Part shown: positions 35,510-64,000 of the stretch, one piece after another
How the letters are laid out: each line of letters begins with the position of its first letter
Position numbering within the stretch: position 1 is the first letter of the stretch
Source: Thalassospira sp. MCCC 1A03138
GTDB taxonomy: Bacteria; Pseudomonadota; Alphaproteobacteria; Rhodospirillales; Thalassospiraceae
Assembly: GCF_002115785.1 (NCBI RefSeq)
Contig: NZ_JFJY01000010.1
Coordinates: 62,001-126,000, forward strand
DNA length: 64,000 bases
Direction: 5' to 3'
The notes under the pieces: model-generated
Databases searched by the model: none
What the model saw: only the letters and a program-made list of their open reading frames with translations
Told to the model about the DNA's origin: nothing
Translations under genes and position numbers: made by a program

Positions 35510-35704
35510 AACGTGTCTCCGGCGACATATATTTTCAAAACACAGTCCTGTTAAGCCGGTTATATCCTCAGAAACCCGCTTTCACAAACCATATGGTTGA
35601 TTGCATCGGGGGTTGGGTCAAGGCTGTATAAAACCTTGATTCGGTTTGCAGTGCCGATAGTTAGCGATTATGATTTGCCGCGGGACAATAAACCGGGGGA
35701 CGTG

Positions 35705-37888: not shown

Positions 37889-37989
37889 AGGGTGTTGCAC
37901 GTTGCTACTTTGGGTTAGTTCAGGTAAAGTTGAAGAATAAATTTTGCGTGCAGATCATCAACCTGAAGGTAGACATTCAAGAGGCGATA

Positions 37990-39422: not shown

Positions 39423-42400
39423 TCATTTCGATTTTTCAATATGAAGGCGGATGCGTTCGGCGACTTCGATCACATGGGGATCGAACATCATCGATCCGTG
39501 GGTGCCGCTGACCCATTCAAGGGTCAGATTGTCGCCCGCGACCTTTTGCCAGCCGCTATATTGATCGCCTTCGATGCTGGGTGCGGCGCGGGTTCCGGTT
39601 GTCGGACGCAGCAGCAGGACATCAATCCCGTCAATTTTTGGCGGGACATAATGGACGGCGGCGAGCGCATTATTCTGGAACACGGCGAGCAGGCGGCGCA
39701 TGGTGCCGCGATCTGCCTCGTCGGGCAGAAGGTCGCAATTCTTGCCGCGTTCGAGCAACAGGTCGATGCGTTCTTCGGGGGTGAGCGGACGCAATTCGTC
39801 AACCGTGACAAGGCCGAGCTCGGCAAAGATATCGGCAAGATATTCGGCCTCGCCCTTGCGCAATATGGCGCGGACCGCATCGGGCACGGCAATCGCATCA
39901 AGCAGGATGATATTGCGCACATCAATGCCGCCCTGCTGCATGCGAAACGCTGCTTCGAAGGCCAGCAATCCGCCGAAGCTCCAGCCGATGACATGAATCG
40001 GGCCGTCGGGAACGGTCTGGCGGATGGCGGGCATGTAGGTTGCGACCATTTCCTCGACCGTGGGCTGCAAATTTTGGCCTTCTTCGAGACCTTGGGCTTC
40101 GACCATGTAAAGTGGCTGATCAGGGCCGAATTCACGGGCAAGGTTTTGATAGCACAGCACATTGCCGCCGACCGGATGGAAGCAGATCATCGGTGGTTTG
40201 GTGCCCGATGCATTGACGGTGACAATCGGGCTTTTGACATGCTTGGCGTTTTCGCGTTCGGAGATGCGGGCGGCGAGTTTTTCGACCGAGGCGCAGGTAA
40301 ACAGATCACCCAGCGGGATTTTGACGTTGGTGAGTTTGTTGATTTTTGACAGGAACTGAACCGCAAGGACGCTGTGGCCGCCGAGTTCAAAGAAATCGGC
40401 GGTGGCGTCATCGATGGTGCAATCAAGGACTTCGCCCATCAGGCGGGCGACGGTTTTTTCATGGTCACTGCCAAGCGGCTTGGCAGTGACGCCCGTTACC
40501 TGATCGGTGTTTTCGGGGACTGGAAGGCGCGAAAGGTCGATCTTGCCATTTACGGTCAGCGGCAGGTCATCCATCGTGATCAGGTGGCTGGGCACCATAT
40601 AGTTCGGCAAGGCCTGTTCAAGTTTTGCCCTGCATGCAGATATGTCGAAACAGGCATGGGCATCGTCATCGGTGACGACGTAAGCGACCAGAACAACATT
40701 GCCGTTCTGATGGCGGTCATGGGCGACCACGGCCGCGCGGCGGATATGGGGATGTGTCAGCAGGGCATGTTCGACTTCGCCCAGTTCGATGCGGTTGCCG
40801 CGAACCTTGATCTGACCGTCTTCGCGGCCAAGGAAAATGATTTCGCCATCACTGCGCCGCCGCCCCATATCACCAGTGCGATAGACACGGTTGCCGTTGG
40901 GGTCGGTCACAAATTTCTGCGCGGTCAGGATCGGATCGTTCAGGTAACCGCGCGCGACACCGGCTCCGCCAATGCGGATTTCACCCGGAACACCATCGGG
41001 CAACGGGCGGCCCATATCATCGCAGATTTCAATATGAACGCCCTGAATGGCCTTGCCGATGGGGGGCGGCAGAATCTGTTTATGGTTGTGCGCGGTCATC
41101 ACATATTGCGCCGATGAAACGCAGCATTCTGTCGGGCCATAGGCATTGACCAGTTTGCGGTCAGTCTGGCCGGGCAGGGCAAAGAAACGTTCGACCAGTC
41201 GGGTGGAAACAGCTTCGCCGCCCAGAACCACCATCCTTGCCGGGCAGGAAAACCCATTTTCTTCCCAGTAATCAAGCAGCAGGGAAAACAGGCTTGGCGT
41301 TGCGTCAAGCTGATCAATCGCGTTGGCGACCATCAGGTCATGCAGGGCTTCGGGGTCGCTTCGTGTGGCCGATCCGGTGATGTTCAGGCAATGCCCGTTC
41401 AGGATGGCCGCGAAAATCTGAACGATGGAGCCATCAAAGGCAAAGGGCGCGATACAGGTCAGGTTCAGGACGCGGTCCGGATCATCGGCACCGATCGGTT
41501 TTAACTGTGTATCGAGAACGGATTGTGCCAGGTTTACAACCGAGCCATGTTCGATCATGACGCCCTTGGGCGTGCCGGTGGTGCCGCTGGTGAACAGGAC
41601 ATAGGCAAGATCGTTTGCCGATGTGACGGTTGCGGGGTGTTGATCGTTTGCGGCATTGAGCGCAGCCAGATCGTGGCGGCGCTTCGTCGGTGCGACCGGG
41701 TGTTTTGCCGCATCCGATGTCAGGACGAAATCGAATGTGTAGGGGGCCGGATCGAACCCGTCGGCATCGATGGCGGATCGGTTGGCGGCAAAGCCGCCCT
41801 GTTCGCGTGCCCAGTCTTCAAGAAAGCATTGCGGGACAAACAGGTCTTCGAGGAAATCAAGCCGGGTATTGTAGCCTTTGCCCACCGTCTCGCGGGCAAA
41901 CCGGGCCAGATCGGCAAGGTAATCATCGCGGCGATCCGCATCCCATACATTGCCAAGATAAATCGCCCCGCCCGGTGCCAGCAGGGTTTTTGCCTTTGTC
42001 AGGACCGTGCGCAGATAACCGTAACCGGGGAAGTTTTCGATGACGCTGTTCATGACGATCAGGTCGAACGAACCCGGTTCGTAAACATCGATATCATGCG
42101 CGCCAAGCTGCCGACCGATGACATGCGTCATGCCAAGATTGATCGCCAGGGCCTCGGTCCGTTCGACGTTACGGCGCGACAGATCGGTCGCGACATAGGT
42201 GCCGACCACCGGGGCGACGTGTTTCATGGTGAAGCCGGATGCGCAGCCGATTTCAAGCACCCGGGCATTGTTCGATACCAGACCGGCGACCTTGTTGCGG
42301 GCATTTGCGCCAAAGGCATCCATCGCACTTTGCGCAATCGGTTGGCCGGTAAAGGCACTTTTCCAGCCGCCAGCCAGAATGTTATCGGCATCGTCACCCG

Positions 42401-42947
42401 CCAGATGATCCCACAGTTCGACCGACATCAGGGAGCCGTGATTTTCCGTCAGGGTATCGATATCGTCACGGTCAAGACACAGAATGTTGGTGACGGTTTT
42501 GCAGCGCCACTGCAACTGGTGCAGATCGCCGATATGAGCGCCTTCGGATATGATCAGCGGTAGCGCTGCATTGCGGACCAGTGTGGTGCGGCGGATCAGC
42601 GGCACATTCGGATCAAGCGGCACAAAGGCGAAGCCTGCCTTCAGGACGCCAAGGGTTGCTGCGATGTAATGGCGGTTGCGCCCGGTCATCACACCGACAA
42701 GCGAGCCGGTCGGCAGGGCGAGACCGGCAATGAAATGCGCTATACGATTGCTTTGACGATCAAGGTCAACATAACTGATTTCGCCGGTTTCATCGCGGGT
42801 TGCGATGCGATGCGGGTAAGACGCCGCAATTGACGCAAACCGGTCGATGATGCTGCCGGTTGTTGCCGATGGCGGAACATCGGGTGTGCCATCCATACCG
42901 GGCGTTGGCGTATCGAGGGTTTCAAAATCGAAATCGGCGATTTTCAT
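39423..42947 (-). CDS. Terminal NRPS protein: A[methyltransferase]-PCP-TE, no condensation domain
   Basis: A 1174-residue protein that ends the assembly line. It begins with an adenylation domain (about 30-815) split by a SAM-dependent methyltransferase at about 175-415, whose motif I is VLEIGCASGFT (230-240), placed between A2 (LKAGFAFVPLD) and A3 (FTSGTTGTPKGV, 452-463). In studied examples this placement gives side-chain O- or S-methylation. The pocket residues read roughly D-G-V-D-V-G-A-V-S by hand; I cannot name the amino acid. A PCP (LGGHS, Ser859) and a thioesterase (GWSFGG, Ser990) follow. There is no C domain: the preceding protein ends with one, so the module is split. The start overlaps the upstream stop by one base (TAATG). 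Confidence 0.93.
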   Translation of the reverse strand: MKIADFDFETLDTPTPGMDGTPDVPPSATTGSIIDRFASIAASYPHRIATRDETGEISYVDLDRQSNRIAHFIAGLALPTGSLVGVMTGRNRHYIAATLGVLKAGFAFVPLDPNVPLIRRTTLVRNAALPLIISEGAHIGDLHQLQWRCKTVTNILCLDRDDIDTLTENHGSLMSVELWDHLAGDDADNILAGGWKSAFTGQPIAQSAMDAFGANARNKVAGLVSNNARVLEIGCASGFTMKHVAPVVGTYVATDLSRRNVERTEALAINLGMTHVIGRQLGAHDIDVYEPGSFDLIVMNSVIENFPGYGYLRTVLTKAKTLLAPGGAIYLGNVWDADRRDDYLADLARFARETVGKGYNTRLDFLEDLFVPQCFLEDWAREQGGFAANRSAIDADGFDPAPYTFDFVLTSDAAKHPVAPTKRRHDLAALNAANDQHPATVTSANDLAYVLFTSGTTGTPKGVMIEHGSVVNLAQSVLDTQLKPIGADDPDRVLNLTCIAPFAFDGSIVQIFAAILNGHCLNITGSATRSDPEALHDLMVANAIDQLDATPSLFSLLLDYWEENGFSCPARMVVLGGEAVSTRLVERFFALPGQTDRKLVNAYGPTECCVSSAQYVMTAHNHKQILPPPIGKAIQGVHIEICDDMGRPLPDGVPGEIRIGGAGVARGYLNDPILTAQKFVTDPNGNRVYRTGDMGRRRSDGEIIFLGREDGQIKVRGNRIELGEVEHALLTHPHIRRAAVVAHDRHQNGNVVLVAYVVTDDDAHACFDISACRAKLEQALPNYMVPSHLITMDDLPLTVNGKIDLSRLPVPENTDQVTGVTAKPLGSDHEKTVARLMGEVLDCTIDDATADFFELGGHSVLAVQFLSKINKLTNVKIPLGDLFTCASVEKLAARISERENAKHVKSPIVTVNASGTKPPMICFHPVGGNVLCYQNLAREFGPDQPLYMVEAQGLEEGQNLQPTVEEMVATYMPAIRQTVPDGPIHVIGWSFGGLLAFEAAFRMQQGGIDVRNIILLDAIAVPDAVRAILRKGEAEYLADIFAELGLVTVDELRPLTPEERIDLLLERGKNCDLLPDEADRGTMRRLLAVFQNNALAAVHYVPPKIDGIDVLLLRPTTGTRAAPSIEGDQYSGWQKVAGDNLTLEWVSGTHGSMMFDPHVIEVAERIRLHIEKSK

Positions 42948-45900
42948 TATGCGTCCTTTTGGGCGTTTTGTGCGGCGGCTGCGGCGAATTTGCCAAGGAA
43001 TGCCAACCAGCGCCGCATGGTTTCCGCATCAAACAGATCGGTGTCATATTCAAGCGTAAAGCGTGCCTGACCGGCTTCTTCGGTCAGGAACAGAATGATG
43101 TCATGTTTGGCCGTCGTGTTATCGACAAAGGCATCCATGTTGGATGGCAGTATGCCGTCGGCATCGGGGGCAAGCATCGGCAGGCCGGATTGAGCCCAGC
43201 CGTTTTGCGCCAATCCGCTTACGGCTTCGAAGCGCTGATATTCGAACACCACATTGACCAGTGGCTGACGGTTGGATTTGCGTTTTGGCGCGACGGCCCG
43301 GACCAGTTCATCAAACGGGAAATCCTGCCGGTCCAGCGCATTGGCAATATTGACATGGGTGGCACGGATCAGATCGACAAGATCGGTATCATCGTCAAGC
43401 TGCATACGGATTGGCAGGACATTGACAAAGAAGCCGATCAGGCCTTCGGTTTCGATGCGTTCGCGCCCGGCAACGCCCATGCCGATCACCATGTCGCGTT
43501 GGCGTGTCAGGCGATAGAGCATGGCGGAAAACAGCGACAGGCCCACCGATGACAGGGTTGTTTTGTTCAGGCTGGCAAGCCGATGCAGGCCGGATAAAAC
43601 ATCATCAGGCAGGGCAAGATGCACATGTGCCCCGCGGAAGGATTGTTTTTCCGGCACAGGGCGATCCGTTGGCAGATTGATCTGTTCCGGCGCGTTGGCA
43701 AGCTGTTGACGCCAGTAATCGGCGGCATCCGCCCAATCCTGCCCGGATTGCCAATGGGCGAAATCCTTGTACGTGATCGGAAGTTTCGGCAGGGCATTGT
43801 TCCGTTCATGAAGAACGGCATCATAAAGCGCGCCAAGTTCGTTGATCAGGATGCGCGAAGACCAGCCATCGCCGACAATATGATGGGTCATCAGGATCAT
43901 CAGGCATTCATTTGCCGCCACCTGGATCACACGCCCGCGGATTAGCGGCGGCTGATCAAGGATGATCGGTGTTGCGGCCTCAAGCCGGGTCAGGCGCAGG
44001 GCTTCGCGGGCCGGATCGCCATGACCGGAAAGATCATCAAACGCGACGGCAGGCGGCGTGGTGGCGTGGATTTTCTGCGTGATCGTGCCGTCCTGTTCGG
44101 CAAAGCCCGTGCGCAATGTTTCATGACGGTCCACCAGACGGGTCAGGGCGGATTGCAGGATATCGGCCCGCAAATCACCGGTACAGCGGAAGACATAAAG
44201 CATGCCATAGGCACCGCTGTTGCCGTCCATCGTTGAGAGCAGATAAAGCCGTTTTTGCGCGTGGCTGGCCGGGTAATATTCCATTTCCGGTGCGGGCGGG
44301 ATTTGGCCATTGCCGGTGGCGGCGATATCGAGGGTGGCATTTTCGATATGGCGGGCAAGCCCCGCGACCGTCGGATCGGCAAAGAAGTCGGCCATGCTGA
44401 TGCGTTTGCCGGTTCGGTCCGTAATGCGGTTCACGATCCGGATCGCCATCAGGCTGTGACCGCCAAGCTGGGTGAAGCTTGCGTGCCGGTTACGGATGGG
44501 GCTTGCGAACACCTCGGTAAAGATATCGCAAACCAGTTCCTCTGCCGGGGTGGCGGGCGGGATGTCGATGCCGCCGTCAAGCGCCATCGCATTTGATGTG
44601 CGCACCGTTTCGAGTAGCGCCTTTCTATCCACCTTGCCATTGGCGGTGATCGGGATGGTATCGACGATATGCCATTTTGCCGGGATCATGTAGCCGGGCA
44701 GATGTGTGCCAAGCCACATCATCAGGGCAGGGATATCGATATCCTGATCCTGTGTCGCCTGAATACAGCCGATGATGGTACCGCCGTCAGGCGCGTTGGC
44801 ATCAAACAGGGCAACGGCATTTTTGATGCCGGGCGCGGATTGAAGCTGCTGTTCGATTTCATCCAGTTCGATACGGAAGCCACGCAATTTGATCTGATTA
44901 TCATGGCGGCCGCCAAATTCGATCCGACCATCGCGGGTCCAGCGGGCAAGGTCGCCGGTGCGATAAAGCCGTTGGCCGGGCTGATCGGGATCAGGGATGA
45001 ACCGTTCGCGGGTCAGGTCGGGACGTTGCCAGTATTCGCGGGCCAGCCGCGCCCCGCCAATCATCAGTTCGCCCCAGACCCCGACGGGCGCGCGTTGACC
45101 GTTCTGATCAAGGATCAGGGTTTTGGTATGGGCGATGGGTTTGCCGATGATGGTGGCGTCGGTATCGCCTGCTAGATCATTTTCGGTGATAGGGCCGACA
45201 ACGGCGAAGGTGGTGCTTTCGGTCGGGCCATAGACATTCAGAACCTTGACGTGTGGGCAGGCCGCGATGAAGGTGCGGACATGCTGTTTGCTGATCGCGT
45301 CCCCACCGATCATCAATATTTCAAGACAGGCAAGGGTTTGGGGATCATGATCGACCTGACGGTTGAACAGGCCGACACTCATGAACATTTTCGTAACGCC
45401 AAATTGCGACAGGGCATCGCCGAGTTTGGCCGGATCAAGGAGATCATTACGGTCAATGACGGCGATTTTGGCGCCGCGCAGCAGGGGCGCCCAGATTTCA
45501 AAGGTCGAGGCATCAAATGCCAGCGGGCCCGCCTGTGCCACCACATCAGAGGCAACGATTTTGGCGTAATCCGCCCCCGACGCCAGCCGACGCACGGCCC
45601 CCTGTTCGATCAGAACCCCCTTGGGCGTTCCGGTCGAGCCGGAGGTATACATGATATAGGCAGGCAAACTGTCCGGGTTGATCAGTTCGGGCAGGGTGAA
45701 GTCCGCCGGTGCCGGGGCAATGCCCGCGATATTGATCCGTTGCGCGGATGGACCGCCGGTTTCGGACAGGGCATCAAGCGCGTCATATCCGATGTCGTCA
45801 ACCAGAACCAGTTTGGCGCGGCTGTCTGACAGGATGAATTGATTGCGTGCTGCCGGATAGGCCGGATCAAGCGGGACATATCCCGCGCCGATGGCGGTAA

Positions 45901-54900: not shown

Positions 54901-57900
54901 CGATGAACAGGCGGGCGGGGCCTTCGTCCATTTGGTGGCGGCCAAGCATCCATGAACCGGCGGGTGCCAGATACTGGCTGACGCCATCGGGATGATGGGG
55001 ATCGGATTTGAAACGCAGACGCAGTGCATGTTGCCGTTCTTCCAATTTGTGCAGGGCGGCCTGCAGGGCATCGGCATCAATCGGGCCATCGATTTCAAAC
55101 GCGGCGGGGACGGAATAAACCGCCATGTCGGGCTGCATGCGTTGGAGGACCCAAAGACGGGCCTGTCCGCTTGAAAGCGGGAATTTCGGACCGTCTGCCT
55201 TGGGGATCAGAAATTGCCTGCCATCCTGTTTATGGTCGGCAAGCAGGGTTGCGATCCCGCCGACTGTGCGGGCGACAAAGATATCCTGAAGTTTCGGGCG
55301 GATGCCGGTGGATTTTTCGAGAAACCCGGCAAGGCGCATGGCGACAAGGCTGTGTCCGCCCAATGCAAAGAAATCCGACGATGCGGTGATGTCGCGGTTG
55401 CCAAACAGGGATTTGAAATGGTTGGCGACGATCTGTTCGAGTTCGCTGCTGCTGTTGGCGTTGCCGGTTTGGGGGGCAAGTGGTGCCGTATCTTTCAGAG
55501 CACCAAGAAGCTGTTTGCGATCTACTTTGCCATTCACATTGACCGGCAGATGATCCAGCACGACAAACCGTTCGGGGATCATGTAATCGGGCAGATTACG
55601 GCCAAGGATTTGCATCCAGGTACTGCTGCTATCCTGATCGGCGGCGATGGCGGCACCAAGGAAGGCATCGGCACCACTGCCGACCGGCATCACGCAGGCA
55701 TTGCGAATGCCGTCAATCTGGCTCAGTCGTTTTTCAATGGCGGCAGTTTCAATCCGGTGCCCGCGAATTTTGACCTGCCCGTCACGACGGCCACCAAATT
55801 CAATCACGCCATCCGCCCGCCAGCGCGCGCGGTCGCCGGTTTTGTAAAGGCGGGTTTCGGGCAAATGATCGAACGTGACGAATGCCTTGGCGGTGCGTTC
55901 GGGCGCGCCGGAATATCCAAGAGCCAGCCCGTCGCCCGCGGCATAAAGTTCACCCCAGACCCCGGTCGGAACGGGTTGCCCGCCGGCATCAAGAATATAG
56001 GTGCGCGTATTGCCAATCGGCCGGCCAATCGGGATGGTTGCCGATTTTACGTCCTGCGGCGTGATCGGGTGGATACAGGTGAAGGTGGTATTTTCCGTCG
56101 GGCCATAGCCGTTGATCAGGGCAAGATCCGGGCAGGCGGTCATGACTTTTTGCAGGTGGGTGGGGCTTAGTGCCTCGCCCCCGGAAAGCAGTCTTTTGAG
56201 CGGGGCAAAGCAACCCGGGGCATCATCGGCGATACGGTTAAACAGGCTTGCGGTCAGCCACATGGTGGTGACACCGCCATCTTCAAGGGCATTGCGAAGG
56301 GCTGCCGGATCAAACAGGGTTTCGTTATCGATCAGAACCAGTTTGCCGCCATTCAGAAGCGGTGCCCAGATTTCAAGAGTTGCGGCATCAAAACCAAGCG
56401 ATGCGGCCTGTGCCATGACATCGGTGTCATCAAATGCAAGCGCCCGATTGTTCACAGCCAGACGGGCGACAGCCCGGTTGGGGATCAGCACCCCTTTGGG
56501 CGCACCGGTCGAGCCCGATGTGAACATGACATAGGCCAGATCATCGCCCGCACGTTTGGCAAAGGATGCATTTGATGTTGCGTTGGCGTCGGGAAGATGT
56601 GCGATGCGAACGCGACCAGAAATGCCCGACAGGCGATCAAATTCGGTGTTGTCGCACAAAAGAACGTTGGCCCCGCATTCTTCCATCAGGGTCGCAATGG
56701 CATCGGCAGGCAGCGACTTATCAATCGGCAGATAGGCCGCACCGTGCCAGGCAATGCCAAGAAGGGTGATAATCGCATCAAGCGAACGATCTGCAGCAAG
56801 GGCTACAACTGAGCCGGGTGCAACATCAAGGGCATCAAGCCCTGTGGAAATGGCAGCGACCCGTTGCCCCAAAGCACTATAGGTGATTTTCTGATCGCGA
56901 TCCTGCAGGGCGATCTTGCCCGCATTGGCCGGGTTTGTGATCTGCCGGGCGAGCAATTCGCCAAGGTCGCAGTCACGCGGGTAATCCGATGCGGTATCGT
57001 TGAGCGAGATGGATAGTTGATCGCGTTCGTCTTCTGGAAGAATATCCACAAGACCAAGCGGCATTTCCGGGTTTTGGGCAAGCGCACGCGCAAAGGTCAG
57101 GAAACGTTTTGCAAAACGTTCGATCCATGCTTCGCCATAGATGTTGCTTTGATACTCGACGGCCAAAGATGTTTCCGCGCCGTTTTTCGTCATGCCGACC
57201 ATCAGGGGGAATTTGCCCGCCCCGAAGTCGAGATCTTCGATCACGAAGGGGCTGTCGCTGGATTCCATCACATGGACGGCATCGAATGGCAGGCCGGTCG
57301 GGCCCTGTGCCGCCTGTGTCAGATCATGCATCAGGCGCGACAGGGGGTAATCCTGCACGTCAAGCATGGAAAGAACTTCGTGCCCGACCTGTCTGGTCAG
57401 GGCATCAAGATTATCTGCCATATCCGGTTTGATCGCGACGGGCAGGACATTCACAAAGCAGCCCATCGACTGCATGGTTTCCTTGTCCCTGCGACCGGCA
57501 AAGGGCAGCCCGATTATGGCTGTGCCGTTTTCCTTGTGCCGGGCGATCACGGCGATGGTGAGCGACGCCCAGAGTGTGGTCTGGGTCGTTTTGCGGGTAT
57601 GGCTGGCAAGCTTTGCGAAAGCGTCGGCGTCAGCGCCTGTCAGTTTGATCAGAAGGCGTTTGCCGCCGCCATTCCGTTCTGCTGCCGGGTCGTCAGGCAG
57701 CCCGGCAGATAACAGTTTATCGGTTCGTGCCGACCAGAATTTCCGCGCGATTTCGCCGCGTTCCCGATCCAGATTGCGATGTGCATTGCGCACAAGTTTT
57801 TCGATATCAGGTACGTTTCCGGGCGTGTTTCCGGCAAGGATGGCAAGAAGCTCTTTTTGCAGCAACATGATCGATTGGCCATCAAAGCACAGATGATCGA

Positions 57901-58501
57901 TCGCCATGGCCAGTTGCGGGGCTTTTCCGTCGTCATGTTCGATATAGCCAAACCGGGCCAGAGGACCCGTCGCGAGATCAAAAAGATCATGGCGGATTTC
58001 TCGGGTGGTGTCGATTTTGCGCACAGTGACCGGCATATCGGCATGCACGCGCTGGATCAGCTGCCCGTCCTGTTCGACAAAGGTGGACCGGAGGGCATCA
58101 TGGCGTTTGACAATGGAGGCAATCGCATCGCGGACCGCATTGAAACCGGTTCCTTTGGGAAGGGTGATGCCTGTAACGATATGGTAATTGGCACTTGCCG
58201 GTTGGTCACGTCTTGCAATCCATTGGCCTTCGATGGCGGGATGGGCCGGGAAGGATTTGAGGATCGGACCTGCTTTGGTGTCATGACTTTCGGCATCGGA
58301 AGGTTCACGCAGCAAGCTTAGGATTTCGGCCTTCAGGTCACGGGTTTCGGATTTCAGGGCATCATCAAATGCACCGGTCGGTGCATCAAAACAAAGATCG
58401 TGCCCGTTGGCATGCAGACTTAGCACAATGTCGCGCTGACGGAGTTTGTCGAGCAGGTTGCGCGCGGTTTGTGTGCGGCGTGACAGCTGATCGGTATTCA
58501 T
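42947..58501 (-). CDS. Giant hybrid NRPS-PKS: docking-C-A-PCP-C-A-PCP-KS-DH-KR-ACP-ACP-C-A-PCP-C
   Basis: About 5184 residues, from ATG 58501 with GGGAG upstream (a GTG one codon earlier is possible). A TubC-type docking domain lies at 8-68 (LLDKLRQRDIVLSLHANG...LKAEILSLLRE). Condensation 1 has DHLCFDG (~203), the first His replaced by Asp. A1 reads about D-A-L-W-L-G-G-T-F, near valine codes; PCP1 is at ~1045. Condensation 2 (SLHHAICDG ~1235) precedes A2, D-V-W-H-F-S-L-V-D, a serine code; PCP2 is GGNS (~2115). The PKS module has KS (DTACSSS ~2343, EAHGTGT, GNYGHLDGAAG), no AT, DH (HHLNG ~2790), KR (TGGTGG ~3220, AYSAANAF ~3367) and ACPs at ~3488 and ~3585. Condensation 3 (IHHTVCDG ~3803), A3 (D-A-F-F-M-G-V-T-F, Ile/Val-like), PCP3 (~4683) and a terminal condensation domain (HHIVGDG ~4873) follow. 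Codes are hand alignments. Confidence 0.94.
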   Translation of the reverse strand: MNTDQLSRRTQTARNLLDKLRQRDIVLSLHANGHDLCFDAPTGAFDDALKSETRDLKAEILSLLREPSDAESHDTKAGPILKSFPAHPAIEGQWIARRDQPASANYHIVTGITLPKGTGFNAVRDAIASIVKRHDALRSTFVEQDGQLIQRVHADMPVTVRKIDTTREIRHDLFDLATGPLARFGYIEHDDGKAPQLAMAIDHLCFDGQSIMLLQKELLAILAGNTPGNVPDIEKLVRNAHRNLDRERGEIARKFWSARTDKLLSAGLPDDPAAERNGGGKRLLIKLTGADADAFAKLASHTRKTTQTTLWASLTIAVIARHKENGTAIIGLPFAGRRDKETMQSMGCFVNVLPVAIKPDMADNLDALTRQVGHEVLSMLDVQDYPLSRLMHDLTQAAQGPTGLPFDAVHVMESSDSPFVIEDLDFGAGKFPLMVGMTKNGAETSLAVEYQSNIYGEAWIERFAKRFLTFARALAQNPEMPLGLVDILPEDERDQLSISLNDTASDYPRDCDLGELLARQITNPANAGKIALQDRDQKITYSALGQRVAAISTGLDALDVAPGSVVALAADRSLDAIITLLGIAWHGAAYLPIDKSLPADAIATLMEECGANVLLCDNTEFDRLSGISGRVRIAHLPDANATSNASFAKRAGDDLAYVMFTSGSTGAPKGVLIPNRAVARLAVNNRALAFDDTDVMAQAASLGFDAATLEIWAPLLNGGKLVLIDNETLFDPAALRNALEDGGVTTMWLTASLFNRIADDAPGCFAPLKRLLSGGEALSPTHLQKVMTACPDLALINGYGPTENTTFTCIHPITPQDVKSATIPIGRPIGNTRTYILDAGGQPVPTGVWGELYAAGDGLALGYSGAPERTAKAFVTFDHLPETRLYKTGDRARWRADGVIEFGGRRDGQVKIRGHRIETAAIEKRLSQIDGIRNACVMPVGSGADAFLGAAIAADQDSSSTWMQILGRNLPDYMIPERFVVLDHLPVNVNGKVDRKQLLGALKDTAPLAPQTGNANSSSELEQIVANHFKSLFGNRDITASSDFFALGGHSLVAMRLAGFLEKSTGIRPKLQDIFVARTVGGIATLLADHKQDGRQFLIPKADGPKFPLSSGQARLWVLQRMQPDMAVYSVPAAFEIDGPIDADALQAALHKLEERQHALRLRFKSDPHHPDGVSQYLAPAGSWMLGRHQMDEGPARLFIARETVRPFDLENKPLARADLITLAPNRHWMLVSLHHAICDGWSMPTLLRDLAALYAEETGTAPPSLPLLDRYYEDFASWQHSYLYSADGKDLLARWKKRLLPLPEPLALPTDRRRPKIRRFAGDFHETAFGEDTARLINDAADRHGTTAFSILTALVQILMYRQCGQTDIPLGMLVAGREQTALDDVVGFFVNTVVLRQNVDPDAGFDDHLTQTGKTIIDALSDQAAPFENVVAAVNAPRDPARNPLFDVLVAWQDSIPDLGKLGDAELSLLKTEFPFSKFDLAFYFSKRNDALLCQIEFDTDLFDKSTIQAIFNRLEILAGAALPKPSTIKIAELPILPADERARIDQFNATDLDLAIERSISEPFLDQVRATPTAPAVIGTSETLSYEQFTRRAAGIAAKLRAASIGPGDVIGVAVRRSVDMLAAIHGILLCGAAYSPLDPDHPEQRRKDMLDDLGYPRVITTGDLAHLFDVDNVLIIDGTEDADIPDAINAPDDLAYVLFTSGSTGRPKGVEIAHRGVLNRILWMQDAFPIGPDDVILQKTPITFDVSVWELFWWSWTGARVVLPDPGVERDPQQLAQTIRDHGVTTMHFVPSMLASFLFSVEHGLVDIENLGSLKRVFASGEALDPALVKRFNDLLFDRFGTELHNLYGPTEATVDVTWHACSPLHNPDIVPIGKPIANTTIRILDDKLGDMPIGVTGEIVLGGPQIARGYRNRPELSAEKFPDDPRNPGHKLYRTGDLGRFLADGSVEYLGRIDHQVKIRGFRIECGEVETTIESHDLVERALVKAVRVGDLDELHAFVLGDGELTIGVLRDHLRTRLPEYMIPARFFALDHLPLTSSGKVDRKALSGTPMAGSPKVANRKSKPAIAAKSDADNHDLANLERVLQRLWQEILPGVMADREDGFFDVGGNSLLLLRLHEKINARWPGEVSIADLFASATIARQAELLAGLDIATDDLAAAQGAQLATDEPIAVIGIGLQLAGADDINTFWSDVARGTDRVRPLPPERDHETRDMMAAIGRPVPAHFREAAYLDRIFDFDPGRFRMAPADAALIDPEQRLFIETALMAMENAGYGGQALRGKKVGIFAGGGTNPAWRVAMEHVARDKAEQVFALNVPSNMVTRLSFLKDWHGPANIIDTACSSSLVAVHQACQNLRSGTCSIALAGGAKLIPCPPDADGGFTIDSSTARTRAFDDSADGTGMGEGSVVFVLKPLGNAIADGDPLHAIIRGSAVNQDGASSGAAAPNPAMQADVIRQAAQTADIELGSISYIEAHGTGTSLGDPIEIDGLTRAFAGSTDEHGFALIGSAKGNYGHLDGAAGALGLARAIMALRFDQAPPQPFFEIPNSRIDFARAPVRPTNRLEPLADRGAPKRAGVSSFGLSGINAHVILEAAPKHAANAKDETSQNGTFILALSAANEAALTDYATKLHRAIASDTGLAVHDICHTLATGRDQLRHRFAVAVSDRDSLLNALARLIAGDMENCAAPKPAAGALPVSAVSHDPADATANARQWLEGANLIWPDDMRARRVSLPHAPFAKIVCKPVFGDTRAPDTTIMTGPVETERGRCFAIPVASPSFWPTNEHHLNGQPTLVGMAVPAMIATAARNGTGDQTVHISDLKWQKALLPNALPDGTATLLLGNDGHVELGGRLKNGKWSVFATARWANDTPENNRTDNSPSLDHARAKCTLTANIAPYAAQIGPITISDRWDCRVSMQYSADETMAMMHLKLKPQYHADLRDWIIHPAMADIACSMILTAEDNGSLPVGIDEITLHAPFSGDIIVCAERRHPGQADFTFFDADSHKLLLTIRGTRFSGDGNGKAASAMPELLEIDWLPGTVEMQPVPENTIMIADGDFWPIPPACQRVHPDMLGKDMLAKAQNVILALQPGEDIALRTARCLRDILRSMRGRMRLVVAGSGAYQIDSDTIPASPDRSAAAGVAIAVAAEEPRLALSFTDIAPADFITHIGGELAAEPGRDPVSVYRNQVRYRRKLRPISGHDNLPQPNWPDHGVCVVTGGTGGFALALADEMALGGKIALALLARRGETGLDDFAQSKLADLRANGIKVSIHTCDVADKNALSDTLATIRNSLGPITAIAHAAGLADGGFLAVRDMDAFDAIMAAKIKGARHLDALTLNDPVQAFVMFGSLTAIVGVPGQAAYSAANAFLDGFARYRRSQGRPALTIDWCALADQGMAARHNVPLQDGAAITPQQAPIFWRDAMCSTAAQLVVLDPALAGETAEQPAKPVTTPASVSVTATDISQKIAAIWAETLGYDAVTTDDDFFALGGDSITGMQIVDRMNAELKLSLAISDLFAAPTVSDLTAQFAPSPAGDVSTPEISDHRDAILDEKATPAEKIAKIWAEILGYDTIDPDEDFYALGGDSITGMQIVDRMNAELACNIGLADLFETPTITALAAKISPSVETAELPQSLANPPAEETSLPSASKPVKAATETGIETDPRRAPEMEFYPLAPEQVSVLHAEHSGNMGTAFNLPHAFMLDESIDLDRLHDAITRLTERHEILRTRLIANGDDSVMKILPLHDALPDLTLIELDASVSLEDVGADLVMPFDLATEIPARWRLICAANGQKALFFDIHHTVCDGFTIEMLLGDLLALYRGQVLPPLPYQLRDYAYWSQQPESLKRLETARGYWLSLYQGPLPKLNLPSDRRRPAFHSFRGEIVAFDIDPALLKSARKFASDQRVTMFSLMMATWFAVLGRITATDDLVISVPVNQRDGTGFRNVPGMMVSLLPLRMQIANDETFASLLHKVQNHHIDALRHRAYFLDLLLDDLSPPATPERTLLSEISLSYMNYAQGDYGPDDQAKAMLPIGLGRQQCKNDLAIFVRDLPERMSISFDYYADMFDQARMIELGHIFTKTLQKLVTTETTARTIPIADLDLLPDDQKTNIEIWEQGPQPETSLDADTNAGIFAIFANQASVTPDAPAIRDNNGTWSFGELHAKARAIAHCLQTAGVKPGDLVAVHIERGRPAIAAILGITAIGAGYVPLDPAYPAARNQFILSDSRAKLVLVDDIGYDALDALSETGGPSAQRINIAGIAPAPADFTLPELINPDSLPAYIMYTSGSTGTPKGVLIEQGAVRRLASGADYAKIVASDVVAQAGPLAFDASTFEIWAPLLRGAKIAVIDRNDLLDPAKLGDALSQFGVTKMFMSVGLFNRQVDHDPQTLACLEILMIGGDAISKQHVRTFIAACPHVKVLNVYGPTESTTFAVVGPITENDLAGDTDATIIGKPIAHTKTLILDQNGQRAPVGVWGELMIGGARLAREYWQRPDLTRERFIPDPDQPGQRLYRTGDLARWTRDGRIEFGGRHDNQIKLRGFRIELDEIEQQLQSAPGIKNAVALFDANAPDGGTIIGCIQATQDQDIDIPALMMWLGTHLPGYMIPAKWHIVDTIPITANGKVDRKALLETVRTSNAMALDGGIDIPPATPAEELVCDIFTEVFASPIRNRHASFTQLGGHSLMAIRIVNRITDRTGKRISMADFFADPTVAGLARHIENATLDIAATGNGQIPPAPEMEYYPASHAQKRLYLLSTMDGNSGAYGMLYVFRCTGDLRADILQSALTRLVDRHETLRTGFAEQDGTITQKIHATTPPAVAFDDLSGHGDPAREALRLTRLEAATPIILDQPPLIRGRVIQVAANECLMILMTHHIVGDGWSSRILINELGALYDAVLHERNNALPKLPITYKDFAHWQSGQDWADAADYWRQQLANAPEQINLPTDRPVPEKQSFRGAHVHLALPDDVLSGLHRLASLNKTTLSSVGLSLFSAMLYRLTRQRDMVIGMGVAGRERIETEGLIGFFVNVLPIRMQLDDDTDLVDLIRATHVNIANALDRQDFPFDELVRAVAPKRKSNRQPLVNVVFEYQRFEAVSGLAQNGWAQSGLPMLAPDADGILPSNMDAFVDNTTAKHDIILFLTEEAGQARFTLEYDTDLFDAETMRRWLAFLGKFAAAAAQNAQKDA
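47700..48031 (-). repeat. Tandem duplicated acyl carrier protein domains
   Basis: Two adjacent carrier domains are encoded 279 bases (93 codons) apart. A 53-base block at 47700-47752 is identical to 47979-48031, with only scattered differences just beyond. At protein level both contain ALGGDSITGMQIVDRMNAEL. The identity at third codon positions suggests recent duplication or gene conversion rather than selection on protein alone. Confidence 0.92.
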
Positions 58502-61500
58502 CACAGAACTCCCTGTTCACGTGACGGGCGGGGGGCTGTTGTGGCCGGTTTTGCTATTGCCGTTGCTGTTGGCGCGGATCGGGCATTGGTCGGCGGGCTG
58601 TTTGTCTCAAAGGATGCAAGCAGGTTGGCAACACCTGAAACAGTGCGGCCTTCGAACATTACGGCGGCGGGAATTTCGGCAGTCAGGACTTCGGAAAGCC
58701 GTGTTGCGATCCGCACGGCGAATAAGGAGTCCCCGCCAAGTTCAAAGAAATCATCATCGGGGCCGATTGCCGGATCGCCAAACATATCGCGCCAGACGGC
58801 AAGAATGGCGGATTGCGCGTGTGTTTCAGTTTGGGCATCGGACGTATTTTGTGCCGGGTTTTGTGCCGGGGGCAATGTGGCCTCCACCGGGGCAGCGGCA
58901 ACGGCGATAGATTTGGGATCGGCGTTCACGGTGGTTGCCCTCTCCGGCCAGAAGCGGCGTCGGTCAAAGGCGTAGGTCGGCAACGGAATGCGATGGGCAT
59001 CACGGGTTTGGTTCACCCGATCCCAATCGGGCGATGTTCCCATGACCCACAGCCGGGAAATCGCAACGGCCAGTGCGTTTGACCCGGTGATCGCGGCATC
59101 CGTTTTTCGGGCGGCATCGGGGCCGGGGGCAGGTTGCAGGGCAATGCTGTTGCCGGTCGCTGTGCCATTAACAATGGCAAGGCGGCTTGCCGTGTTGCCA
59201 AAGCCGCATTCGACCATGATCGTTTCGGGGATTTCGGCCAGAAGTCCCTTGATGTTATCGGCAAAGCGCACCGCATTGCGCAGATGTTGAACCCAGTAAT
59301 CGGGATTGGTGGCGTCTTCGGGTGTTAGCCAGTTGCCAGTCAGGTTGGACTGGATCGGAAGGGTTGGCGCGTTCAACCGGATTTTGGCGACGACATGGCG
59401 GAATTCATCCAGAACCGGTTCCATCATCCGTGAATGGAAAGCATGTGAAACCACGAGCCGACGACCGGATTTACCCTGTGATTTGATGTGTTCTTCAAGC
59501 GCATCAATGCATTCGGTGCTGCCCGCCACCACGCATTGACGCGGGCCGTTGATTGCAGCCATCGACAGATCGGGGCCAAAGGCCGACAACAGATCACCGA
59601 CTTCGGCCTCGGTCATGGACAGGGCAAACATTGATCCCGGTTCGGTCTGTCCCATCAGGCGACCGCGCATCACCACCAGGCGAAGCGCATCTTCAAAGGA
59701 CATGACCCCGCCAATGCAGGCCGCGACATATTCGCCAATGCTGTGCCCGGCCAGTGCTGCGGGCAAAATGCCGTTTTCGATCAGCCAGTTTGCCAGCGCA
59801 TATTCATAAATGAACAGGGCGGGCTGGGCGATTTCGGTACGTGCCATGCGGCTTGATGTTGCCGCGCTTTCATCGGGAACGGTCAGCAATGCAAAAAGAT
59901 CATCGGGGCCGCCCGTCTGTGCCACATGCTGGCAGGCATCACGAATCATCTTTGCCGATGTTTGATCCACTTCATAAAGGCCTTTGGCCATGCCCGGTCG
60001 TTGCGATCCCTGACCGGGGAACAGGAAGACGATGGAAGGGATATTGCGTTGGGCAACGGCCTGATGGCGGGCGGTCGATTTCGGATTGGTCAGGGCTGAA
60101 ATCGCAGCCTTGATGTTCGTGGCAACGATGGCGGTCCTGAAACGATAGGCGTGACGCCGTGACAGGCTGTTTGCGATATCGGATATCGCAATGTCTGATC
60201 CATTGCGGTCAAGCCAGCTTGCGGTGTTTTCCAGAAGTTTTTGCAAGGCGGGTTCGCTTGCCGCCGAGAAGGGCAGGATTTGGGGAATATCGTTTTGTGT
60301 CTGGCGTGATGCTGGTTCATCGAAACGGGGTGCTTCTTCGATAATCACATGAGCATTGGTGCCGCCAACCCCGAAGCTGCTGATACCCGCGCGCAGCGGT
60401 TCATCTTCATTATTCAATAATGGTTGAGCAGTGTTGTTTATTTGAAATGGTCCCTGATCTAGACCAAAGTTTTCATTCGGTTGATTGAAATGGCAGGTCG
60501 GCGGAAATGCTCGGTGGCGGATTGCCAATACGGCCTTGATCAGACCTGCAATTCCGGCAGCACTGTCCAGATGGCCTATATTGCCCTTGACCGAGCCAAG
60601 CCAGATCGGATGCGTTGGCGTTGCATCGGCTTTCGCATAAACCTTGTTCAGTGCGGCGATCTCTATCGGGTCGCCAAGCGCGGTTGCGGTGCCATGGCCT
60701 TCGACAAAGCGGATGGTCGATGGATTGATCTGGGCATCGGCAAGGGCCGTCTGGATGGCCTTTGCCTGACCATCGACACTGGGGGCGGTAAAGGCGGCCT
60801 TTGCCGAGCCGTCATTGTTGATGCCGATGCCCTTGATGACCGCATGGATGGTGTCCTTGTCGGCAATGGCATCATCAAGACGTTTCAGAAGAATAATGGC
60901 CGCACCACTGCCGCCGACAACGCCATCTGCCTTGCTGTCAAACGGGCGGCAAACGCCGCTTCGTGATCCGATCCCGCCCTGCGTGAAATAATATCCGCCA
61001 GCCGGGCTAAGCCCAAGGGCTGCCCCACCGGCAAGAGCGACGCGGCATTGACCGGATCGCAAGGCATTGACGGCCAGGGCAAGATTGACAAGTCCGGTCG
61101 AACAGGCGGTCGAGGATGCGATGGCAGGGCCGGTCAGGTTCAGCTTGTAGGCAAGCCGTGTGGCTGCGAAATCCTTGTCATTTCCGATTGTCATGCCATA
61201 CCGGATCGCATCGGGGCGGGCACGCAGGCGATCACGCAGGCTATCGACCAGATAGGTCGGGAAACCAACGCCGACATAGGCTCCGACCGGGCCATCACGC
61301 TCCGGATCGCAAGATCCATCTTCCAGAGCGCTAAGGGCGACTTCAAGCAGCAGGCGTTGTTGCGGATCGGTTTCGATGGTTTCGCCCGTGGTCATGGCAA
61401 ACGGTGCAGGATCGAACATATCGAGATCGTCAAGAATCCCATGGCGGGCGATGAAATCGGCGTCTTCGAGCGCCGACGGATCGCCTCCCATTGCGCGTAG

Positions 61501-64000
61501 CCGGGAAATATCGACGTCCTTTATCTGATCGATACCGTTTTCAAGCATCGACCAGAATGCGTCGCGGTCATTCGCGCCGGGCAGGCGCATCGCCATGCCA
61601 ATAATCGCAATGTCGTGATTTTCAGACACATTGCGTTGGGGCTTTACCGGCTCGGCTTGTGGGGTTTCGGGGGCATGTTGATCATCCGCACAAAGGTGAC
61701 GTGCGAAGGAATTGATGGTCGGGTGCTGGAATATTTCCACCGATGCAATGTTGCGCCCGGCGAGTTTTGACAGGGCAAACTGGGCGCGCGGTACCAGCAA
61801 TGAATGGGCGCCAGCTTCAAACAGGTTGGTGTCAAATTCAATTTCGTCTGTTTCGATCAGCTCCATCCATATCCTGGCAATTTTACCGGCCAGTTGATGG
61901 ATGCGCGCCTGATCGGGTTTGCTGGATGCAGGGGGCGATGCTTTGGACGCAACAGGCTGTTTGCCATCCGGGTTTCGGGCGAATTCGGCAAGTGCCTTGC
62001 GGTCGATTTTGCCCGACGGCAAGAGGGGTAGCGTTTCCACCCATTCAATGCGGGTCGGAACGGCCGCATCGGACAGGTGGCGCGCCAGTTCTGCGCGCAC
62101 GGTTGCTGCGTCGGGGCGTTTCGACGGGTTTGCGTTGGATAGAAGATAACCGATCAGTTCGCCACCATGATTGGTTTTGACATGCAATACCGCAGCCCGT
62201 CCGACGCCGGACACGCGCGAAAGCTGGTATTCGATTTCCCCGATTTCGATGCGTTGCCCGCGAATTTTGACCTGTTCGTCCGTGCGCCCGTGAAAATAAA
62301 GCAACCCGTCTTCGCCCCAGGAAACCAGATCACCAGTGCGATAAAAGGTTTCATCGGTCTCGCCCGTCGGATCCGTGACGAATTTTTTCTCCGTCACGTC
62401 CGGCATATTGATATAGCCGCGGTTAAGGCCTGCGCCACCAAGGTAAATCTCGCCCGGGACGCCAAGCGGTACCCGTTTTCCGTCTTCGTCAAGTATCCGG
62501 ACAAAGCCACCCTTGTCGATGCGGCCGAGCGGGATGCTTTTGGTTTGGGGGGGGCTTGGTATCAGATACACGGCGGCATGAATTGTCGCCTCGGTCGGGC
62601 CATAGCAGTTCCAGATATCGACGGTTTCGAACGCGGAATAAATCCTGCGGACGAGTGTTGGCTGCATGATTTCGCCGCCCGTGATCAGACGGCGCAATTT
62701 GAAAGCGCCATCTGCCGGAACGGCATCGATCACGCTTTCATAAAATGACGGGACCGACATGATGTGGGTGACATGATGTCGTGCCACACCGTTCCAGAAT
62801 TTATGCCCGTCACTGAGTATCGCGTGGGTCATCAGCCACATGCGATGGCCACGGATCAGCCCGACGCAGAATTGCAGCATCCAGGGATCAAATCCGAGCG
62901 ACGGGAAAAGACCCATTATTTCAGGGTTGCCGTTTTCATGTGATCCGATACCGAATTGCGCAATGGCGACGTCGATTTTATCGGCAAGGGATTGGTGATG
63001 AACGGGAACCGGTTTTGGCTGCCCGGTCGAACCCGATGTATGGAAGACAAAGGCAATATCGTCGCCACAAATATCAGCATGGATATTTTCAAAGGTGATG
63101 CTGCCGTCAATGCCGGTTACGGCATTGATATCGTTTACCGTGATGGAGGTGTCGCCGATTTTGTGCCATGTATCGGTGCTGTCAGTCAGAACCAGACGGC
63201 AATCAAGATGGCGGGTCATCGACGCATTGCGCGCGATAGGTTGCAACGGATCAAGCTGCACACAGGTTGCCCCGCATTTCAGGATACCGATCACAGCGGC
63301 CGTTTGCTGCGCACTGGGGGAAATGTTCATCCCGACAAAATCGCCCGGTGCAATGCCGCATTGTTTCAGGTGGTGGGCGACGGCATTGGCCATATGGCCC
63401 AGCGTTGCAAACGTGACTTCGTGGTCATCTTCGGTGATCAGGGCGACATCGCCGGGGCGTGATGCAATGGCATGATCGATGCGTTCGGGAATGAGCCGTA
63501 CCGGAGCCGACCTTGTGAATGTCGGGCCGGTTTCAAGCGTGCGGATAATGGCAAGCTCGTTCATCGGCGGTGCGGCGATGGCCGCGATATCCTGTTCCGG
63601 GTCGTCCAGTGCGCGGGACAGGAAATAACGGAAACGTTCGGCGATGCGCGTAACGGATTTAACGTCGTGGCAAGCGGTGTCATATTGCCAGATGATTTCG
63701 GCTTCCTGCCGGTCTGGGCTTATGGCCTGCATCATATAGATCAGGCCAAGATCGGTGACTGGCCCGTTATAGATATTGACCCGGCGTGTATCCAGCCCGG
63801 CAAAGGATAAGGGTTCTGCGCCGTCCAGACTGTTGAAAAAGGCACCGCCGCCCGAAAGACCCCGGGCACCCAGACGTGCTGCACGCATGCGCGGCGCGCC
63901 AAGGCGCATATGACGGACATCGCGACGTGCCCGGGCAAAGATATCGCTGGCCAGTTCCGAAAAACGTGTGTGTTTACCCAAATCGGCATCGAAGGGTACG
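58501..64000 (-). CDS. Hybrid NRPS-PKS, 5' partial: [C]-A-PCP-KS-AT-ACP
   Basis: The frame is open to the right edge, so the start lies beyond 64000; about 1832 residues are visible. The first ~120 are the end of a condensation domain. The adenylation domain has TSGSTGQPKPVPV (~325, Pro where most have Gly) and pocket residues read as D-P-L-M-I-G-C-I-H, which match no code I know. The carrier site is EAGAHSLL, not LGGHS. The ketosynthase has STACSTG (~965), EGHGTAT and GNIGHLDSAAG. The acyltransferase has GHSIGEYVAA (~1422) and HAFH (~1520), typical of malonyl-CoA loading. No DH or KR is present, so the beta-keto group would be kept. An ACP (LGGDSLF ~1755) ends the protein. The stop overlaps the next start as TGATG. 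Confidence 0.93.
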   Translation of the reverse strand, partial: VPFDADLGKHTRFSELASDIFARARRDVRHMRLGAPRMRAARLGARGLSGGGAFFNSLDGAEPLSFAGLDTRRVNIYNGPVTDLGLIYMMQAISPDRQEAEIIWQYDTACHDVKSVTRIAERFRYFLSRALDDPEQDIAAIAAPPMNELAIIRTLETGPTFTRSAPVRLIPERIDHAIASRPGDVALITEDDHEVTFATLGHMANAVAHHLKQCGIAPGDFVGMNISPSAQQTAAVIGILKCGATCVQLDPLQPIARNASMTRHLDCRLVLTDSTDTWHKIGDTSITVNDINAVTGIDGSITFENIHADICGDDIAFVFHTSGSTGQPKPVPVHHQSLADKIDVAIAQFGIGSHENGNPEIMGLFPSLGFDPWMLQFCVGLIRGHRMWLMTHAILSDGHKFWNGVARHHVTHIMSVPSFYESVIDAVPADGAFKLRRLITGGEIMQPTLVRRIYSAFETVDIWNCYGPTEATIHAAVYLIPSPPQTKSIPLGRIDKGGFVRILDEDGKRVPLGVPGEIYLGGAGLNRGYINMPDVTEKKFVTDPTGETDETFYRTGDLVSWGEDGLLYFHGRTDEQVKIRGQRIEIGEIEYQLSRVSGVGRAAVLHVKTNHGGELIGYLLSNANPSKRPDAATVRAELARHLSDAAVPTRIEWVETLPLLPSGKIDRKALAEFARNPDGKQPVASKASPPASSKPDQARIHQLAGKIARIWMELIETDEIEFDTNLFEAGAHSLLVPRAQFALSKLAGRNIASVEIFQHPTINSFARHLCADDQHAPETPQAEPVKPQRNVSENHDIAIIGMAMRLPGANDRDAFWSMLENGIDQIKDVDISRLRAMGGDPSALEDADFIARHGILDDLDMFDPAPFAMTTGETIETDPQQRLLLEVALSALEDGSCDPERDGPVGAYVGVGFPTYLVDSLRDRLRARPDAIRYGMTIGNDKDFAATRLAYKLNLTGPAIASSTACSTGLVNLALAVNALRSGQCRVALAGGAALGLSPAGGYYFTQGGIGSRSGVCRPFDSKADGVVGGSGAAIILLKRLDDAIADKDTIHAVIKGIGINNDGSAKAAFTAPSVDGQAKAIQTALADAQINPSTIRFVEGHGTATALGDPIEIAALNKVYAKADATPTHPIWLGSVKGNIGHLDSAAGIAGLIKAVLAIRHRAFPPTCHFNQPNENFGLDQGPFQINNTAQPLLNNEDEPLRAGISSFGVGGTNAHVIIEEAPRFDEPASRQTQNDIPQILPFSAASEPALQKLLENTASWLDRNGSDIAISDIANSLSRRHAYRFRTAIVATNIKAAISALTNPKSTARHQAVAQRNIPSIVFLFPGQGSQRPGMAKGLYEVDQTSAKMIRDACQHVAQTGGPDDLFALLTVPDESAATSSRMARTEIAQPALFIYEYALANWLIENGILPAALAGHSIGEYVAACIGGVMSFEDALRLVVMRGRLMGQTEPGSMFALSMTEAEVGDLLSAFGPDLSMAAINGPRQCVVAGSTECIDALEEHIKSQGKSGRRLVVSHAFHSRMMEPVLDEFRHVVAKIRLNAPTLPIQSNLTGNWLTPEDATNPDYWVQHLRNAVRFADNIKGLLAEIPETIMVECGFGNTASRLAIVNGTATGNSIALQPAPGPDAARKTDAAITGSNALAVAISRLWVMGTSPDWDRVNQTRDAHRIPLPTYAFDRRRFWPERATTVNADPKSIAVAAAPVEATLPPAQNPAQNTSDAQTETHAQSAILAVWRDMFGDPAIGPDDDFFELGGDSLFAVRIATRLSEVLTAEIPAAVMFEGRTVSGVANLLASFETNSPPTNARSAPTATAIAKPATTAPRPSREQGVL

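What the first reader, a model, noticed from the sequence alone, without database searches (positions are those of the whole stretch)
39423..64000. Hybrid NRPS-PKS assembly line with a domain order I do not recognise
Three collinear, overlapping genes encode a visible order [C]-A-PCP-KS-AT-ACP // docking-C-A-PCP-C-A-PCP-KS-DH-KR-ACP-ACP-C-A-PCP-C // A[MT]-PCP-TE. By collinearity the visible part would add: unknown amino acid, malonate kept as beta-keto, Val-like, Ser, a second malonate reduced and possibly dehydrated, Ile/Val-like, and a side-chain methylated residue, then release by the TE. No epimerisation domain is seen. The order and Ser code are read directly; the product is inference. 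I cannot match it to a known compound.
Basis: partly seen in the sequence, partly recalled or inferred. Interest (0 to 1): 0.78.

Follow-up and report, generated by a model that had tools for sequence, protein, structure and literature searches.

The report
Thalassospiramide assembly-line genes in Thalassospira
These three genes look like the already described Thalassospira assembly line for thalassospiramides, lipopeptides that block calpain proteases, so the domain order that looked unfamiliar is a known one.

Summary
The window lies in a Thalassospira genome (third protein 97% identical to T. lucentensis MCCC 1A02072). With the 5' end taken from the contig, the locus reads C-A-T-KS-AT-ACP // dock-C-A-T-C-A-T-KS-DH-KR-ACP-ACP-C-A-T-C // A[MT]-T-TE: seven modules, open frames, main motifs present. 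This fits the published thalassospiramide (ttc) line: seven modules; valine, homologated serine, valine and N-methyltyrosine, with a 12-membered lactone; TtcC with a methyltransferase at the rare a2/a3 site. All five condensation-domain matches of the genome lie here. [quoted passage not shown] Verdict: an orthologue of a known cluster. The leftover point of interest is a series of relatives that lost A and KS domains but kept the acyltransferase. Not tested: alignment to the CNJ-328 TtcABC sequences.

The parts
58501..64000 (-). ttcA-like gene (5' end outside window, to about 64923): C-A-PCP-KS-AT-ACP, 2140 aa
63571..64000 (-). first C domain (aa 22-451; 5' part outside window), HHLVCDG
62008..63477 (-). 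A domain, module 1; code read by eye DPLMIGCIHK, no standard match
60142..61614 (-). KS, module 2; TACST, EGHGTAT, KGNIGH
59218..60030 (-). AT, module 2; GHSIG and HAFH (malonyl type by recalled rule)
58618..58809 (-). ACP, module 2
42947..58504 (-). ttcB-like gene, 5185 aa: dock-C-A-PCP-C-A-PCP-KS-DH-KR-ACP-ACP-C-A-PCP-C
58304..58459 (-). TubC_N docking domain
55505..56884 (-). A domain, module 3, Val-like code DALWLGGTFK
52367..53797 (-). A domain, module 4, Ser code DVWHFSLVDK
50522..51985 (-). KS, module 5 (no AT in module); DTACSS, EAHGTGT, KGNYGH
49454..50152 (-). DH, module 5 (weak Pfam matches below cut-off; HxxxG and HPA..D motifs seen by eye)
48320..48862 (-). KR, module 5
47639..48103 (-). 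tandem ACPs, module 5
44633..46093 (-). A domain, module 6, Ile/Val-like code DAFFMGVTFK
42962..44278 (-). C-terminal C domain, presumed to condense onto the A[MT] module
39423..42947 (-). ttcC-like gene, 1174 aa: A[MT]-PCP-TE
41889..42275 (-). methyltransferase inserted between A-domain motifs a2 and a3 (aa 225-353; a3 at aa 447)
39456..40193 (-). thioesterase, GWSFG (proposed macrolactonisation)
38649..39410 (+). convergent phosphopantetheinyl transferase-like gene (matches below the curated cut-offs); found beside ttcC in 9 of 10 named Thalassospira loci

Best explanation
This is the thalassospiramide biosynthetic cluster (ttcABC) of a Thalassospira strain. Proposed path: the first C domain acylates a module-1 amino acid (Phe/Tyr class) with a fatty acid; module 2 (KS-AT-ACP) adds malonate; module 3 adds Val; module 4 adds Ser; module 5 (KS-DH-KR-ACP-ACP) homologates the Ser to the unsaturated 4-amino-5-hydroxypent-2-enoate; module 6 adds Val; TtcC adds N-methyl-Tyr; the TE closes the 12-membered lactone on the Ser-derived hydroxyl. 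Shown here: gene and domain order, open frames, motifs, A-domain codes, genus, sole locus with condensation domains. From the literature: product, N-methylation, seven modules, non-collinear use (skipping, pass-back, inter-module activation and tailoring). Inferred: that the module-5 KR also reduces the module-2 ketone, that the TtcA AT (or FabD) loads module 5, and that the lactone oxygen is the Ser-derived one (it gives the right ring size).
For: Genus: the 10 named loci returned for the third protein are all Thalassospira, best 97% identity (a scan that finds close relatives only). Seven modules here; seven reported for CNJ-328 ttc (PMC5577590). The A[MT] at a2/a3 is tabulated for TtcC and TtmB as N-methylating (PMC11355689). 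Residue order Val - Ser+ketide - Val - last residue fits the reported valine / AHPEA / valine / N-methyltyrosine (PMC3705361; ring and warhead in PMC4350077). Five of five condensation-domain matches of the genome lie in this locus; the review says that each Thalassospira strain has a single NRPS cluster. The same three-gene order is seen in five further Thalassospira genomes, four intact and one (G024) with its ttcC cut short in the TE. Relatives of the third protein occur in 3 further genera of the class, in line with the reported spread to Tistrella, Oceanibaculum and Fodinicurvata (the genomes here are unnamed).
Against: The review's Scheme 2 legend lists no AT or DH and its text speaks of trans AT, whereas this TtcA has a cis AT and TtcB a weak DH. 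The review says every sequenced bacterium of the 2016 survey had the cluster, but 16 of 29 genus genomes here gave no match to the third protein at E <= 1e-150. PMC12081711 says the thalassospiramide NRPS-PKS pair has a KR in the PKS module; here that is true of module 5 only. PMC11355689 numbers the TtcC domain A6, which is neither the fifth A nor the seventh module counted here. The module-1 and TtcC codes match no standard Phe or Tyr code. Production by this strain is unknown.
Confidence: 0.95

Rival explanations
1. Same line, but altered A-domain pockets give mainly unreported congeners in this strain (a sub-case of the best explanation, not exclusive of it).
For: The module-1 pocket varies among the six three-gene lines: position 239 is L here and in G010 and G024, H in G028 and G005, A in G025, while the nine visible positions of the Ser code are the same in the 12 Thalassospira loci that cover it (by eye).
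Against: Variation at the N-terminal position is already a published trait of the family, so it would not make a new kind.
Confidence: 0.3
2. A syrbactin-like or barnesin-like line (vinylogous amino acid, protease or proteasome inhibitor) that makes something other than thalassospiramide.
For: Shared logic: an NRPS module followed by KS-DH-KR giving a vinylogous amino acid (PMC13096860).
Against: A Ser code where barnesin has vinylogous Arg, seven modules, and A[MT] at a2/a3 as in TtcC; genus and shared neighbourhood.
Confidence: 0.03
3. A decayed or silent locus.
For: The review says several bacteria with the cluster gave no detectable product. In one relative (G024) ttcC is cut short in the TE.
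Against: All three frames open; KS, AT, KR, TE and carrier motifs present; third protein 94-97% identical to four relatives.
Confidence: 0.1

Closest known systems
Thalassospiramide ttc cluster (Thalassospira sp. CNJ-328)
   Same: genus, seven modules, MT at a2/a3 in TtcC, Val / Ser-ketide / Val / final residue order
   Different: no measured difference; sequences not compared. The review legend lists no AT or DH
Thalassospiramide ttm (TtmB, same a2/a3 MT)
   Same: A domain interrupted by an N-methylating MT at a2/a3
   Different: that ttm is the two-gene form seen in six Thalassospira relatives is inferred from the name TtmB, not tested
Syrbactins (syringolin, glidobactin) and barnesin
   Same: vinylogous amino acid acting as a Michael acceptor; KS-DH-KR in the barnesin line
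   Different: barnesin has vinylogous Arg; fewer modules and no A[MT] (recalled)
Didemnin (Tistrella)
   Same: alphaproteobacterial NRPS-PKS with a statine-like unit
   Different: an E domain is listed in the legend of its scheme; residues differ (recalled)

Membership tests
Thalassospiramide cluster | seven NRPS/PKS modules | tested here: met
   against PMC5577590
Thalassospiramide cluster | A domain with methyltransferase between a2 and a3 in the TtcC protein | tested here: met
   position met (PMC11355689 Table 2); N versus side-chain activity not tested
Thalassospiramide cluster | Ser module followed by a module able to make the vinylogous Ser (AHPEA) | tested here: met
   Ser code then KS-DH-KR; the DH match is weak, below Pfam cut-offs
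Thalassospiramide cluster | Val modules before the Ser module and before the terminal residue | tested here: met
   codes DALWLGGTFK (8 of 10 to Val) and DAFFMGVTFK (Ile/Val-like) read by eye against Table 1 and recalled codes
Thalassospiramide cluster | module 1 loads Phe/Tyr; terminal module loads Tyr | tested here: inconclusive
   codes DPLMIGCIHK and DGVDVGAVSK match no standard code
Thalassospiramide cluster | only NRPS cluster in the Thalassospira genome | tested here: met
   5 of 5 condensation-domain matches lie in this locus
Thalassospiramide cluster | use of a trans AT from primary metabolism instead of a cis AT | tested here: not met
   the TtcA-like protein carries an AT; module 5 lacks one. 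'Appear to utilize trans AT' is the review's wording, a remark and not a definition of the family
Thalassospiramide cluster | sequence identity to CNJ-328 TtcABC | not testable with these tools
   no such record was at hand and the primary papers are not held
Thalassospiramide cluster | production of thalassospiramides | not testable with these tools
   needs culture and LC-MS

The most novel reading that the evidence does not exclude
The acyltransferase inside TtcA also loads the AT-less module 5 in trans. Six of six two-gene Thalassospira relatives show neither the module-1 A nor the module-2 KS, yet keep the AT right behind the first carrier domain(s) (Pfam check on three of the six), as if the AT were kept for another module. 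Four of these six also lack the module-6 A domain (Pfam check on two of the four), so their Val would have to come from another module's A domain. This would make the family a natural series of assembly lines shrinking by domain sharing. The passages that I saw do not discuss the AT point; the primary papers were not held, so it may be in print.
Probability: 0.4. Interest if true: 0.4.

Novelty: already known. Interest (0 to 1): 0.18.

Why it matters
It settles an apparently orphan cluster: the product family, its covalent calpain-inhibiting warhead and its non-collinear mechanism are in print. The useful remainder is comparative: 13 of 29 sampled genomes of the genus, own included, carry the line, in at least two architectures that differ by lost A and KS domains, a natural data set for asking which domains of a megasynthase can be shared between modules.

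Tried and rejected
Rejected: a new compound class (fits thalassospiramide); side-chain methylation (the a2/a3 site suggests it by analogy with TioN and MarQ, but TtcC is tabulated as N-methylating); a pseudogene (frames and motifs intact). Structure prediction and fold search were not used, as the domains were identified by sequence. The module-1 and TtcC specificity codes could not be matched to a standard code. The primary thalassospiramide papers (JACS 2013, JBC 2016, Nat Chem Biol 2020) were not held, so their content is taken from a review, a conference abstract and citing papers. No MIBiG copy was among the tools.

What I saw of each paper: passages of PMC5577590, PMC3705361, PMC12081711, PMC9964501, PMC4350077, PMC13096860, PMC8949500, PMC10204066, PMC12943608 and PMC7024214 (in the last, one conference abstract); passages plus section 7 of PMC11355689; all others only as search listings.

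Full report
Observation. The three minus-strand genes are real and open. The window is G000:C2:62001-126000; the contig continues, and the 5' end of the first gene lies at about window position 64923 (on L002; L004), giving a 2140-aa protein if the TTG start is right. Pfam gives C-A-PCP-KS-AT-ACP for it, TubC_N-C-A-PCP-C-A-PCP-KS-DH-KR-ACP-ACP-C-A-PCP-C for the second and A[MT]-PCP-TE for the third. The genes overlap by 4 bases and by 1 base. About 136 residues lie between the AT and ACP matches of the first gene, so module 2 has no KR. The DH of module 5 is weak (E 4.4e-5 and 5.1e-4, both below the Pfam cut-offs), with HxxxG and HPA..D motifs visible by eye; the proline of the usual HxxxGxxxxP is replaced.

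Motifs (by eye, rules recalled). Cys, His, His are present in both KS domains; the AT has GHSIG and HAFH; the KR has the Ser/Tyr/Asn signature; carrier serines and the TE GWSFG are present. The first C domain of the second gene reads DHLCFDG, keeping the catalytic second histidine.

Specificity codes, counted by eye on GrsA numbering (reference codes): module 1 DPLMIGCIHK (no standard match); module 3 DALWLGGTFK (8 of 10 to the Val code DAFWIGGTFK); module 4 DVWHFSLVDK (Ser; EntF code recalled); module 6 DAFFMGVTFK (Ile/Val-like, recalled codes); terminal module DGVDVGAVSK (no standard match).

Organism and relatives. A scan of named genomes with the third protein returned 10 loci, all Thalassospira, 65-97% identity in the best segment (25 stretches matched a pattern, 10 encode a relative). 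Among 60 genomes nearest in kinship, 13 of 29 in the genus (own included) and 0 of 31 outside it matched at E <= 1e-150. So 16 of 29 genus genomes gave no match at that cut-off, although the review says that every sequenced bacterium of the 2016 survey had the cluster; the samples differ and I did not look further. In 385 genomes of the class, 6 matched: the own genome and 5 from three other genera. The review names Tistrella, Oceanibaculum and Fodinicurvata as further carriers; the genomes here are unnamed, so the identity of those genera is not claimed.

Why thalassospiramide. PMC5577590 (passages) describes ttc of CNJ-328 as a seven-module NRPS/PKS line and a single NRPS cluster per Thalassospira strain; here there are seven modules, and 5 of 5 condensation-domain matches of the genome lie in this locus. 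PMC3705361 (passages) gives valine, 4-amino-5-hydroxypent-2-enoate (a homologated serine), and a further valine plus N-methyltyrosine with a 12-membered lactone; the codes and the KS-DH-KR placement here give that order. PMC11355689 Table 2 lists TtcC and TtmB as A domains interrupted by a methyltransferase at a2/a3 with N-methylation; the other a2/a3 rows in the part shown, TioN and MarQ, are S-methylating. The same site is interrupted here. PMC4350077 (passages) reports that the unsaturated ring carbonyl binds calpain Cys115.

Mechanism. The collinear reading gives fatty acid - X - malonate - Val - (Ser+C2) - Val - N-MeTyr. [quoted passage not shown] The missing KR of module 2 together with 3-hydroxy units in the products fits inter-module tailoring; that the module-5 KR does it is my inference. 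Module 5 lacks an AT. The genome has two acyltransferase-family matches, the TtcA AT and one elsewhere (C29, frame of 328 aa, presumably FabD).

Variation in the family. Of the 13 genus loci, 6 are three-gene lines like this one (own, G028, G005, G010, G025, and G024 with ttcC cut short in the TE), 1 is a contig fragment (G016), and 6 are two-gene lines in which neither the first A domain nor the first KS was found while the AT remains (Pfam on three of the six). Four of these six (G015, G001, G014, G006) also lack the module-6 A domain (Pfam on two), and in G014 the large frame ends inside the last C domain. Some short carrier domains were missed by the single-sequence comparison. In two non-genus genomes (G092, G220) the first A, the first KS and the AT were not detected and the module-6 A is a remnant of about 100 residues, which recalls the truncated A domain reported for the Tistrella pathway. 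Best-segment identity of the five other three-gene lines to this one is 67-97% (first gene), 76-94% (second; for G025 over 2906 aa only) and 79-97% (third) (G016 left out of these ranges, since it lacks the first gene; its values for the other two are 87% and 96%).

Neighbourhood. A phosphopantetheinyl transferase-like gene lies convergent to ttcC (matches below the curated cut-offs) and beside it in 9 of 10 named loci and 12 of 13 loci; the exception in both is the same rearranged locus (L008, L022).

Points against. I could not align to the CNJ-328 sequences. The review's scheme legend names no AT or DH, and the A6 label in PMC11355689 does not match my count. These look like differences of annotation, but that was not tested.

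Verdict. Already described for the genus; interest is low for the finding itself and modest for the domain-loss series.

Noticed in passing
window 38649-39410 (+): Phosphopantetheinyl transferase-like gene (matches below curated cut-offs), convergent with ttcC, found beside it in 9 of 10 named Thalassospira loci.
   Followed up: partly
L044-L045, L046-L047, L048-L049, L050-L051 (G015, G001, G014, G006): Two-gene thalassospiramide-type lines without the first A and KS and also without the module-6 A domain; Val would have to be loaded by another module's A domain (Pfam on G015 and G014).
   Followed up: partly
L048-L049 (G014): The large frame ends inside the last C domain, about 700 bases before the ttcC-like frame, unlike in its relative G006.
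   Followed up: no
L008, L022 (Thalassospira profundimaris S25-3-2): ttcC-like frame matches only to about residue 995 of 1174, inside the TE, and none of the neighbour genes searched was found beside it; looks rearranged.
   Followed up: no
L002:4374-9297: Upstream of the cluster: SbmA/BacA-like ABC transporter, FhuF-type siderophore-iron reductase and a TonB-dependent receptor, though all condensation-domain matches of the genome lie in this one cluster.
   Followed up: no
window 35597-36211 and 37930-38550 (+): Two related small proteins (DUF697 Pfam match in the first; about 42% identity in a cross-match) on either side of an SPFH/Band-7 protein; found in 8 and 9 of 10 named Thalassospira loci.
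   Followed up: no
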